DNA from: Bacillaceae bacterium JMAK1
GTDB taxonomy: Bacteria; Bacillota; Bacilli; Bacillales; Marinococcaceae
NCBI GenBank assembly: GCA_012970285.1
Contig: JIBW01000002.1
Coordinates: 1 to 64,000 of the forward strand
DNA length: 64,000 nucleotides
Direction: 5' to 3'
Position numbers and translations under genes: made by a program. Numbering within the stretch: position 1 is the stretch's first letter; every line of letters starts with the position of its first letter. Shown in pieces: positions 3,085-28,256 of this stretch. The notes under the pieces were generated by a model. That model saw only the letters and a list, made by a program, of their open reading frames with translations. It made no database searches and had not been told where the DNA came from.

Positions 3085-3308
3085 AAGCATCGCTATAACA
3101 TAAAAGTCATGACGGTAACGAAGTAGTTTGGCGTTTATTGGTACAGAAAGTCGACGGTTGCTGCGAGTCGACCCAGAACGTTAAATGAATTACATTGCCC
3201 GAACTTTCCCGTAAGTGGAACGTGAACTCTGCGTTAAAGAGCCGAGTGGAGAATAGAGATGTTATTCTCAACAAGGGTGGTACCGCGACACGTTCGTCCC
3301 TTTTTTGG
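3085..3308 (+). promoter_or_regulatory. Tyrosine-specific T-box leader
   Basis: The leader contains the conserved T-box sequence GGGTGGTACCGCG (about 3275-3287), followed by CCC and a T-run (3297-3306) acting as terminator. Stem I features are visible: a hairpin GTCGAC...GTCGAC around a GGTTGCTGCG loop (about 3150-3172), then the specifier region GAAT-TAC-ATTGCCCGAAC with TAC (Tyr) at 3191-3193. Uncharged tRNA-Tyr is expected to stabilise the antiterminator and switch on tyrS. The specifier codon agrees with the downstream gene. Confidence 0.92.
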
Positions 3309-24755: not shown

Positions 24756-25745
24756 ATGGAACGTCAAATAGATACAGATCAGTTGTTTCACGTATTAGAT
24801 GAAATGGCTGAAACGCTAAGCAATGAAGGACATGGCAGTTACTTGGAAACACTTGCGCTCGCTGGAGATAATTTATTCCAAGGAAGTATTATGCAACAAC
24901 CGCTCTCAGACGTAGCGTTTAAGAAAATGGAAGAGCAATTTAAAAAGATCGATCAAATGACGATGGAGCGAGAAACAGTTCGAAAAGCGTTCCAACTTGC
25001 GATCATTAAAGGGATGAAACAAGCTGTACAACCTCATCATGCGATGACACCAGACGGCATTGCTATTTTTATGTCGTATTTGTTAAAACGTTTGTTAAAA
25101 GGACAACTAGGTGTGAGTGTCTACGATCCTGCTGTAGGAACAGGAAACATGCTAACCGCTATGATGAACCATACAGAAGGCATCGAACGTGCAATAGGGG
25201 CAGATGTGGATGAGTCTTTAATTCGTCTTGCGTTCGTTATGTCAAATCTACAGCAATATGAACTAGAACTGTACAACATGGATAGTGTCAAAGAAGAAGG
25301 CATACCGACGGTTGATGTCATTGTGTCAGACCTTCCGAATGGGATTTATACGAACGATGAGGTCGTAGAATCGTTCAAAACGAAACCTAGTGAAGGAAGA
25401 ATGCCAGCAGAGTATGCAATCATTGAAAGCAGCTTACGTGCATTAAAGCCAGGCGGGATTATGCTTGTACTGATTCCGAATGATTTATTCACAAGAGAGC
25501 ATTCTGAAGCGTTCCGCACATTCATGAGAAAAGAAACAATTACACTTGGGATGTTGCAACTTCCTGAGACGATGTTTAAAGCGGAAAGGCACGGAAAGAG
25601 CATTTGGATGTTGCAAAAACAAGGTCCAGACGTATCTGCCCCGCAACAAGCTTTATTCGCAGAACTTCCATCATTTACACGTGCAGAAGCAATGACAGAC
25701 ATGATGGGTAAAATTAACGAATGGTTTGATCACATTTATAACTGA
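24756..25745 (+). CDS. ytxK: YtxK-like class I SAM-dependent methyltransferase
   Basis: A 329-residue protein, matching B. subtilis YtxK in length. A SAM-binding motif VYDPAVGTGNMLTAM lies at about residues 120-135. The adenine-methylase catalytic slot reads VSDLPNG instead of NPPF/Y, as usual in this family, so DNA methylation is doubtful. I chose ATG at 24756 because GAGGTGA lies close upstream; the frame extends to 24630 without a site. It is usually followed by ackA, which is missing here. Confidence 0.88.
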   Translation: MERQIDTDQLFHVLDEMAETLSNEGHGSYLETLALAGDNLFQGSIMQQPLSDVAFKKMEEQFKKIDQMTMERETVRKAFQLAIIKGMKQAVQPHHAMTPDGIAIFMSYLLKRLLKGQLGVSVYDPAVGTGNMLTAMMNHTEGIERAIGADVDESLIRLAFVMSNLQQYELELYNMDSVKEEGIPTVDVIVSDLPNGIYTNDEVVESFKTKPSEGRMPAEYAIIESSLRALKPGGIMLVLIPNDLFTREHSEAFRTFMRKETITLGMLQLPETMFKAERHGKSIWMLQKQGPDVSAPQQALFAELPSFTRAEAMTDMMGKINEWFDHIYN

Positions 25746-25755
25746 AGGTGATGGC

Positions 25756-26574
25756 ATGGATGAAGCAAAGCTTCACGAGAGACTTCGTGAGTTGCATGAG
25801 TGGGAAGCGTTGTATTTTCCTGAAGAAATTCGACATCGTAAGTTTACGAACAGCCAAGATGTGTTACCGAAGCGTTATGAAAAGAAACTCGTAGAACTTG
25901 TTGATCGCTTTATGTTTTATACACAAACACTAATCTTGAACTCGAGTGCTCAAGTTGAAGCGGAGCAACGCATCTTATCCACCGCAAAAGTGTTTAATCA
26001 TCGAATTGAGCACATTTCTGAGTTGGATCAACTTTCGTTTGAGCAAAACAAGTTTATCCTTGAACAACAAACCGCTAAGCAACGCTTGTTGTCATTTGGT
26101 CAAGGTGGATTGACTGGTCTTGGTGGACCGTTTTTATTGGCAGCGGATTTACCGCTAATGCTCGCGACCAATTTACGTACGGTTCAATTGGCAGCAATGT
26201 CGTTTGGGAATGACCTTAGACACCCAAGAGAAATGATGATTGCCTTAAAAGCATTTCATGTTGCAACGCTTCCGAGAAAAGCGCAATATGAAGGGTGGAC
26301 TGAACTACAAGCTGAAAAAGAAGTATGGATGGGTCGTTTTCCTGTGTTTTATGGTGGGAATGAGGAAGTCACATCGGCAGAATGGTTCCAACAACCGTTG
26401 CGTCAAATTGCGAAGTTGATGATCATTTCGGTATTAAGAAAGAAAATGGTCCAAGGCATTCCGATTGCAGGGATTGCTGTAGGCGCGTATAGCAACTATC
26501 AATTAGCAAGACAAGTATCAACGATCGCTGGGCATTATTATGAGCGACGTTATTTAGAAGAAGTTTTACAATAG
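25756..26574 (+). CDS. EcsC-family protein
   Basis: A ~272-residue protein of the EcsC family. The signature is GQGGLTGLGGPFLLAADLPLMLATNLRTVQLAAMSFGND (about 115-155), a hydrophobic segment that may associate with membranes. A later hydrophobic stretch (GIPIAGIAVGAYSNY) lies near the end. The family accompanies the Ecs ABC transporter in bacilli, but no ecsAB genes are nearby and the function is unknown. The start at 25756 follows GAAGGTGAT, ten bases after the ytxK stop, so the two are probably co-transcribed. Confidence 0.82.
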   Translation: MDEAKLHERLRELHEWEALYFPEEIRHRKFTNSQDVLPKRYEKKLVELVDRFMFYTQTLILNSSAQVEAEQRILSTAKVFNHRIEHISELDQLSFEQNKFILEQQTAKQRLLSFGQGGLTGLGGPFLLAADLPLMLATNLRTVQLAAMSFGNDLRHPREMMIALKAFHVATLPRKAQYEGWTELQAEKEVWMGRFPVFYGGNEEVTSAEWFQQPLRQIAKLMIISVLRKKMVQGIPIAGIAVGAYSNYQLARQVSTIAGHYYERRYLEEVLQ

Positions 26575-26656
26575 GTAACAGTAATAAAAGAAATATACAA
26601 AGTGAATGAGAACGTACAAAAGCAATTCATGTGATGTGGTTTTTGTATTAGTTACT

Positions 26657-26848
26657 AAACTATGCAGTAGAAAAGCAGCTGTTGTGGCGGATATAATTTC
26701 GGGTATAGTGTTAGCAGAAGATCATCGAGCGAAGCACTAAGCCCGGAAAACACCGGCAAGAAGCGTAGTTACATTAGCTTTTTGTTCATTTGTGAGTATG
26801 TAGTTAGTACGTTATCTAAGTGGCAATCAGTTGCCGCTTTTTTTTATG
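26657..26848 (+). ncRNA. Candidate structured non-coding RNA
   Basis: AACTATGC (about 26658-26665) can pair with GCGTAGTT (about 26763-26770, one G-U). Inside, CGGG-ta-TAGTG (26700 onward) can pair with CACTA-ag-CCCG. A strong terminator (AGTGGCAA / TTGCCGCT then eight Ts) closes the segment. TATAAT at 26692-26697 lacks a clear -35. I could not match it to a known RNA family. It occupies the place where ackA lies in relatives. Confidence 0.3.
26818..26847 (+). terminator. Intrinsic terminator upstream of argG
   Basis: AGTGGCAA and TTGCCGCT form a stem with one G-U across TCAG, followed by eight Ts. It lies 240 bases past the EcsC-family gene and could end that transcript or a short RNA. Confidence 0.85.
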
Positions 26849-27050
26849 TTATTACATTTTTATAAAAATGTATGTATAACTATTGATGTTCATTAAAGAT
26901 GGTGTTAAAGTATATTTAGACATTGAGAGGGCGATCCCTCCTATATTTTTTACTAAATAATGCATAATAATAATATCGATAGCATGTTTATTCGTACCGA
27001 AATTTTATACACGGAGGTGAATGAAAGGGGAACTATCCCTTTCAATCAAT

Positions 27051-28256
27051 ATGAACAAACAAAAAGTCGTTTTAGCCTATTCAGGTGGATTAGATACGTC
27101 AGTTGCAGTTAGATGGTTAATGGATCAAGGTTATGAAGTTATTGCGGTAGGCTTAGATGTTGGTGAAGGTAAGGATTTAGAGACGGTTAAACAAAAAGCA
27201 ATCAACGTTGGCGCAAGTAAATCCTATACGATTGATGCAAAGAAAGAATTTGCAGAAGAGTTCGTATTGCCTGCACTTCAGGCACGTACGATGTATGAAG
27301 ATAAGTATCCATTAGTATCAGCGCTCTCAAGACCTTTAATCGCGAAGAAGCTCGTTGAGATTGCTGAACAAACGGGTGCAGGGGCTGTTGCGCACGGTTG
27401 TACAGGTAAAGGGAATGACCAAGTTCGTTTTGAGGTGTCGATTCAAGCACTTAATCCAGACCTTGAAGTATTAGCTCCAGTACGTGAGTGGGGTTGGTCA
27501 CGTGATGAAGAGATTGAATATGCAAAAGAGCATAACATTCCAATTCCAGTCGACTTAGATAATCCATATTCAATCGATCAAAACCTTTGGGGTAGAAGTA
27601 ATGAATGTGGAATTCTTGAAGACCCTTGGGCAACGCCGCCAGAAGGTGCTTACGACCTGACGAAGCCACTTGAAGAAACACCAGATACACCAGATACAAT
27701 TGAGATTGAATTCGAACAAGGAAAACCAGTTGCTGTTGATGGAGTTCACTATGAACTAGATGAATTGATTTTGCATTTGAATAAGCTAGCGGGTGCGCAC
27801 GGCATTGGAAGAATTGATCACGTTGAGAACCGTCTCGTTGGTATTAAATCACGTGAAGTGTATGAAACGCCTGGTGCAACGACTTTAATTACGGCGCACA
27901 AGGAACTCGAAGACTTAACGCTTCCAAGAGAGTTAGCACACTTTAAGCCAATCGTTTCTAAGCAGTTAACAGAACTTATTTATCAAGGGCTATGGTTCTC
28001 TGCACTTCGTCCAGCACTTGAAGCGTTCTTGAAGGAATCGCAAAAGTCCGTTACTGGAACAGTTCGTGTGAAGCTTTTCAAAGGTCACGCCATTGTAGAA
28101 GGACGTAAATCACCATTCTCGTTATACGATGAGAAGCTTGCAACCTATACAAAAGAAGATGAGTTTGATCACAATGCAGCAGTAGGGTTTACGCAACTTT
28201 GGGGCCTCCCAACGAAGGTGCATAGCCAAGTGATGAAGAACGGTGTGAAACTATGA
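27051..28256 (+). CDS. argG: Argininosuccinate synthase
   Basis: A ~401-residue ATP-dependent ligase that joins citrulline and aspartate in arginine synthesis. Marks are AYSGGLDTS (N-terminal ATP-binding PP-loop), [13 protein letters not shown] and [16 protein letters not shown]. Homology favours the ATG at 27051 ([13 protein letters not shown]). An in-frame ATG at 27021 sits only three bases after GGAGGTGA, and the sequence between can fold (AAAGGG...CCCTTT). Either may be used. It overlaps argH by four bases (ATGA). Confidence 0.96.

What the first reader, a model, noticed from the sequence alone, without database searches (positions are those of the whole stretch)
26657..26848. Candidate structured RNA in a long gap before argG
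The ~480-base gap between the EcsC-family gene and argG has nested complementary segments (AACTATGC/GCGTAGTT; CGGG-TAGTG/CACTA-CCCG) and a strong intrinsic terminator with eight Ts. It is far from any gene end, and ackA, usual in this place, is absent. I could not assign it to a known riboswitch or sRNA.
Basis: partly seen in the sequence, partly recalled or inferred. Interest (0 to 1): 0.5.

Follow-up and report, generated by a model that had tools for sequence, protein, structure and literature searches.

The report
Decayed jumping-element relic before argG
The folded stretch before argG is a worn-out copy of a small mobile DNA element that sits in many gene terminators of this genus, most likely not a regulator of argG; its better-kept relatives carry a conserved folded segment that also occurs in full-size IS1182-family elements and resembles a Staphylococcus small RNA.

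Summary
The hairpins and terminator are real (26657-26772 folds at z -4.16), but this is not an argG-specific RNA. It is a decayed copy of a repeat dispersed in the genus (Geomicrobium): 15, 16, 13 and 5 model matches in this genome and three congeners. Intact copies are MITEs of about 220-340 bp with IS1182-like ends; 15 of the 17 copies with both ends recognisable are flanked by direct repeats, mostly whole terminator hairpins. At the argG locus one congener lacks the element and two carry it inverted. Across the order the family has a strongly covarying core (92.7% of cells paired; score 0.446 against 0.100 shuffled), found in 96 of 299 genomes, and is a sub-threshold relative of Rfam tsr24. 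In one complete IS1182-family element it lies between the left end and the transposase start, on the opposite strand. The window copy itself is a relic; the family is the interesting part. Whether the core acts as RNA or DNA is open.

The parts
26579..26833 (+). Decayed MITE copy (profile envelope; aligned part 26599-26813). Left end not recognisable; right end inferred at 26819 (..TCTAA) by comparison with other copies
   Evidence: nhmmer profile of 7 intact copies, window copy not among them: 74.1 bits, E 2e-21; end by eye; ends not found by script
26654..26799 (+). Degenerate copy of the structured core (24 of 30 family pairs still possible)
   Evidence: Covariance model R1, 115.2 bits (this copy was one of the 14 in the model); pairs counted
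26658..26770 (+).
26818..26845 (+). Intrinsic terminator that abuts the inferred right end of the element; probably the terminator into which the ancestor inserted (inferred; no second copy of it was found on the left)
25726..26574 (+). EcsC-family gene (PF12787), upstream neighbour
27021..28256 (+). argG, downstream neighbour (start may be 27051)

Best explanation
The segment is a decayed, non-autonomous IS1182-type element (a MITE) between the EcsC gene and argG. Shown: it is homologous to short repeats of this genus whose intact copies have IS1182-like inverted ends and mostly sit between duplicated terminator hairpins; the folded core of these repeats is a conserved, covarying motif that IS1182-family elements of related genera carry beside the transposase start. 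Inferred: an IS1182 transposase acting in trans moved the ancestor here by joining its ends at the foot of a terminator hairpin, and the left end and one hairpin copy were later lost. In the element family the motif probably serves the element (end function, transposase control, or a transcript of its own); this step is inferred. In the window the copy has mutated away from the family fold and most likely does nothing specific for argG.
For: Profile without the window copy finds it at E 2e-21. Dispersed copies in 4 of 4 genus genomes. The end sequence TTTCTCAACAGCCTGA, up to 2 mismatches, occurs 10, 26, 7 and 3 times in G000-G003 against 3, 0, 0 and 1 for the reversed control. 15 of 17 copies with both ends have flanking direct repeats above the 99th percentile of 698 cross-pairings. 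A multi-copy longer element in G. sediminis has matching ends beside terminators. IS1182 transposase homology inside a related element of about 880 bp of the window's own genome. Element absent or inverted at argG in congeners. Complete IS1182-family element with the motif; 10 of 11 loci with transposase homology have one geometry.
Against: In the window copy neither end was recognised by script and no flanking repeat was found; the terminator duplication here is inferred. The Geomicrobium MITEs have not been seen inside a complete IS of this genus: the collapsed IS of G. sediminis shows no motif in the 80-90 bases seen of its ends, and in the 880-bp element the transposase fragment lies on the other side and strand relative to the motif than in other genera (against 92). 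The strong fold of the window copy is not explained by decay alone.
Confidence: 0.9

Rival explanations
1. The copy has been kept as a working small RNA gene: the core is transcribed and ends at the strong terminator at 26845, as its distant relative tsr24 is thought to be in S. aureus.
For: Strong terminator, strong fold, sub-threshold kinship of better copies to Rfam tsr24, typed there as an sRNA gene.
Against: Promoter-like sites only at chance number; the window copy itself does not match tsr24 even at E 10; its fold differs from the family fold; the congeners at this locus lack the element or have it inverted.
Confidence: 0.06
2. It is a cis-acting leader or attenuator of argG.
For: It lies upstream of argG on the same strand and ends in a terminator.
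Against: Absent in G003 and inverted in G001 and G002; 22 of 25 argG loci examined give no profile hit at E 1 or better; what the four Geomicrobium loci share starts downstream of the terminator.
Confidence: 0.02
3. It is a mobile repeat of another class (for example REP elements moved by a Y1-type transposase, or a free-standing structured element), and the IS1182 link is incidental.
For: Nested palindromic core, intergenic, multi-copy; copies outside the genus have several different terminal repeats, and 8 of 27 gave none in the script, which had no null.
Against: Ends shared with longer elements in the genus; the motif lies in a complete IS1182-family element and keeps one geometry in 10 of 11 loci with IS1182 transposase homology.
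Confidence: 0.05

Closest known systems
IS1182 family, especially IS1272/TnSha1 of staphylococci (PMC4923244, PMC5678879; passages read)
   Same: IS1182-type transposase family; insertion at the foot of hairpins, often transcription terminators; both orientations at one site
   Different: IS1272/TnSha1 are described as removing part or all of the hairpin without target duplication; here the hairpin is duplicated on both sides (an outcome that PMC5678879 draws as an alternative in its model figure). The Geomicrobium repeats are MITEs without a transposase gene
Rfam RF02577, tsr24 small RNA of S. aureus
   Same: Shared core letters and pairing: AGACuCC..GGGAG..GCCGAAGACC..GgCuGAG..GGaAAGCGAAGC; 13 of 14 chosen loci match at E 1e-7 to 0.03
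   Different: No match reaches the gathering score of 50 (best 48.1; 0 of 29 family genomes); the window copy does not match at all. The link of tsr24 itself to a mobile element is my inference
Structured non-coding RNA of IS110/IS1111 elements (seekRNA/bridge RNA; listing of PMC11187229, otherwise recalled)
   Same: A conserved structured non-coding segment inside an IS beside the transposase gene
   Different: Different transposase family; no evidence of a guide function; strand and transcription of this motif unknown

Membership tests
Geomicrobium MITE family (described here) | Sequence homology to the family profile | tested here: met
   74.1 bits, E 2e-21, window copy not in the profile
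Geomicrobium MITE family (described here) | Both terminal inverted repeats | tested here: not met
   Neither end recognised in the window copy; so it is filed as a decayed relic, not as an intact MITE
Geomicrobium MITE family (described here) | Flanking duplication of the terminator hairpin | tested here: not met
   Window copy score 12, below the null 99th percentile of 17; met by 15 of 17 copies with both ends
IS1182-family derivative | Ends shared with an IS1182-family element | tested here: met
   For the family, not for the window copy: remnants with PF13751 domains end in TTTCTCGACAACCTGA; 880-bp element with 41 residues of IS1182 C-terminus at 85%
IS1182-family derivative | Mobilised by an IS1182 transposase | not testable with these tools
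   Needs a transposition assay
Rfam RF02577 tsr24 | Score at or above the gathering score of 50 bits | tested here: not met
   Best copy 48.1 bits; window copy no match at E 10
Small RNA gene | Discrete transcript ending near 26845 | not testable with these tools
   No expression data are held
argG leader/riboswitch | Presence and orientation conserved upstream of argG | tested here: not met
   Absent in G003, inverted in G001 and G002, no hit in 21 further argG loci

The most novel reading that the evidence does not exclude
IS1182-family elements of this bacterial order carry a so far unrecognised structured non-coding module upstream of the transposase, on the opposite strand, that is needed for transposition or its control; their MITEs persist because they keep this module, and the staphylococcal small RNA tsr24 is a transcribed descendant of such an element.
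Probability: 0.35. Interest if true: 0.75.

Novelty: new variant of a known kind. Interest (0 to 1): 0.45.

Why it matters
It removes a false lead for arginine regulation. It also links three things that the sources seen here do not connect: hairpin-targeting IS1182 elements, a widespread structured repeat, and an Rfam small RNA family. If the module acts in transposition, IS1182 would be another transposase family with a structured nucleic-acid component; if not, tsr24-type annotations may mark transposon remains. Both can be tested with one plasmid assay.

Tried and rejected
Rfam on the window at gathering and permissive thresholds gave nothing for this gap (DapZ at 18.6 bits against 56 is chance). 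Promoter scan: chance numbers.

Strand of the motif from G.U against A.C cells: 36 against 20 after leaving out two pairs dominated by one of them (105 against 47 with all pairs); p 0.044, but 15 of the 36 come from one column, so not decisive.

Terminal repeats in 27 order-wide copies and 2 Geomicrobium controls: no null was made; 8 of 29 gave none; long matches only in some (L176, L187, L196, L202, L002); L196 has an exact abutting 8-bp repeat. The control L011, whose hairpin duplication shows, was not recovered, so the script is insensitive. The flank comparison had no null and is superseded.

The two transposase queries taken from L217 and L226 were neighbouring genes, not transposases (my choice of the longest ORF); the one hit to them (L185) is not counted.

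Rows dropped: L190 (a simple hairpin in G027, 35.5 bits, likely a false positive) was left out, L181 out. A2 contains two places on both strands (L156, L169); A4 does not. RAYT/REP was considered and not pursued.

Literature: ten searches; no listing showed a paper that names this repeat or ties tsr24 to a mobile element, but listings were capped and most subscription journals are not held. Passages of PMC4923244, PMC9208149 and PMC5678879 were read; no paper was read in full.

Full report
What is in the window. Rfam finds no family at threshold in this gap and only weak matches at E up to 10. The gap lies between an EcsC-family gene (PF12787) and argG.

It is a dispersed repeat. Searching the window's own genome with 26645-26848 gave nine places at E 1 or better, the window and eight others with E from 1.3e-13 to 0.11; one of the weakest, C5:611762, lies in what reads as a coding region and is probably chance. 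In 101 genomes (the own one included) 18 matched at E 0.1 or better, but the best E outside the four genomes of the window's genus was 0.01. A pattern from the core found 10 stretches in the named genome collection, 7 in Geomicrobium sediminis DSM 25540 and 3 in Geomicrobium sp. JCM 19038. Contig lengths identify these with G001 and G002, so the window is from a Geomicrobium; the species is not known.

Anatomy of better copies. They are about 220-340 bp, begin CAGAGTGTCGAAAAA and end TTTCTCAACAGCCTGA (an imperfect inverted repeat), with a nested palindromic core of about 113 bases. Of 27 copies examined, both ends were recognised in 17. In 15 of these 17 the flanks form direct repeats above the 99th percentile of 698 cross-pairings of flanks from different loci; in 14 of the 15 the repeats abut both ends, and after the right-hand copy 10 of the 15 continue with TTT. 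Most are hairpins, i.e. duplicated intrinsic terminators. L048 and L093 lack them. L003 and L034 are one locus in two species. Of the ten copies without both ends, the window's among them, none passes in that test, though L007 shows a duplicated hairpin by eye.

The mobile partner. In G. sediminis many contigs break inside a longer repeat that ends in the same sequence, each time followed by a different hairpin. Another repeat end, TTTCTCGACAATCTGA, occurs at other contig ends, and three pairs of contig ends share one hairpin (C4 end with C20 start, C7 end with C8 start, C7 start with C20 end). That these are the two ends of one element is inferred. Remnants with PF13751 transposase domains in G000 and G001 end in a near-identical repeat beside a terminator. 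In the window's own genome an element of about 880 bp at C8:518857 has 41 residues of IS1182 transposase C-terminus (85% identity, E 2e-18) and the right end of the MITE. No transposase-bearing contig of the multi-copy IS was recovered.

The argG locus. A nucleotide profile from seven better copies, without the window copy, finds the window at 26599-26813 (envelope 26579-26833), 74.1 bits, E 2e-21. Among 25 argG loci (from 27 genomes) it hits only the window's own and those of G001 and G002, where the element is inverted. G003 has no element: the EcsC stop is followed by a terminator and the promoter region that the four loci share. A leader of argG would not be expected to be missing or inverted in congeners.

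On 14 Geomicrobium cores the window copy keeps 24 of 30 family pairs; 11 others keep 26 to 30, and the two inverted argG copies, which carry a deletion, keep 24 and 23 of 26. The window's minimum-energy fold contains none of its 24. The fold seen is therefore a by-product of this copy's mutations.

The family structure. Within the genus covariation gives no support (term +0.3, although 8 of 30 pairs have a change on both sides). Across the order it does. Model R1 (14 cores, window copy included) finds 15, 16, 13 and 5 matches in G000-G003 (two places counted on both strands), 20 of 29 genomes of the family (10 of 12 genera; one of these, G027, is probably false) and 96 of 299 genomes drawn from the order (53 of 116 genera; 10 candidates scored per genome, so copy numbers are lower bounds). 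On 81 matches from 74 sources, window copy not included, 92.7% of cells are standard pairs and 506 cells have changes on both sides; the covariation score is 0.446 against 0.100 for shuffles (0 of 500) and at most 0.059 with partners slid; pairs with changes on both sides 25 against 21.2 (1 of 500), further pair types 84 against 76.4 (3 of 500). Some pairs fit poorly (columns 57/192: 43 of 81 not paired; 81/169: 29 of 77). That alignment was fitted to the model; an unfitted alignment of 32 sequences still gives 14 pairs, 12 with changes on both sides. The conserved loop letters are shared with Rfam RF02577 tsr24: with permissive settings 13 of 14 chosen loci match it at 48.1 to 27.4 bits, below the gathering score of 50; L202 does not. 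The tsr24 model matches 18 of 29 family genomes at E 0.001, none above its cut-off, and none of 14 control genomes.

Where the motif lives outside the genus. In 11 of 75 motif loci the held flanks, often short, contain IS1182 transposase homology; in 10 of the 11 the transposase is on the opposite strand with the motif on its 5' side, 21 to 263 bases away, and L222 is the exception. In four (L274, L276, L235, L220) the homology starts at residue 1 or 2 of a full-length transposase, 39 to 116 bases from the motif. L220, L222 and L225 had been fetched by transposase; the other eight all have this geometry. NCBIfam names the fragments in L220, L222 and L230 IS1182 family. One complete element, L282 (G096), lies within an exact 20-base inverted repeat spanning 1979 bases (ends GAGGCTGGGACAAAA); its 567-residue frame, which runs a little past the right end, scores 416.6 bits against the IS1182 model (cut-off 270), and the motif lies at 880-971 on the opposite strand between the left end and the start codon at 1087. 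Several full-length IS1182 transposases elsewhere (L218, L219, L221) have no motif within the held flanks, so the module is not universal in the family. Among plasmids, 19 records (Priestia 15, Bacillus 2, Radiobacillus 1, Cytobacillus 1) match one element, but the best place covers the core only in the first four, from Priestia megaterium and Radiobacillus; a second query found Radiobacillus alone and nothing in phages.

How it most likely works. Shown: repeat family, shared ends, hairpin duplication, covarying core, carriage by IS1182-family elements. Inferred: movement in trans by an IS1182 transposase that recognises a hairpin. Papers on TnSha1 and IS1272 describe hairpin targeting with loss of the hairpin, and one draws its duplication as an alternative outcome (PMC4923244, PMC5678879; passages). 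What the core does is open: G.U cells outnumber A.C cells only weakly, so neither RNA nor DNA is excluded. For the window copy the simplest reading is a relic beside a terminator.

Noticed in passing
window 3100-3304 (+): T-box leader, 120.6 bits against a gathering score of 93: the only Rfam match at threshold in the window.
   Followed up: no
window 26927-26946: Second terminator-like hairpin (GAGGGCGATCCCTC, then CTATATTTTTT) in the argG leader. A variant of it stands at the same place in G001 and G002, and I saw none in G003; a possible attenuator.
   Followed up: no
window 26854-26871: Perfect palindrome ACATTTTTATAAAAATGT upstream of argG, kept in all four Geomicrobium loci; in G002 it is shorter by one base on each arm and still symmetrical. 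Looks like an operator.
   Followed up: no
L007 (own genome, C4:862410) and L032 (G001, C7:58686): Flanks indicate the same terminator in two species with the element in opposite orientation, as at argG (by eye).
   Followed up: no
L005 and L010: In these Geomicrobium copies the core is interrupted by another hairpin-rich stretch (GGCGGCCTGCAAAGCAG..), a second sub-family.
   Followed up: no
L195, L197, L203, L249, L265; L202, L247: Second copy of the motif within a few hundred bases, on the opposite strand in the first five loci and on the same strand in the last two.
   Followed up: no
G001 contig ends (L083-L087, L095, L096, L127, L128, L131, L132, L136, L143, L145): The G. sediminis assembly breaks at a multi-copy IS inserted at terminators; its interior was not recovered.
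   Followed up: partly
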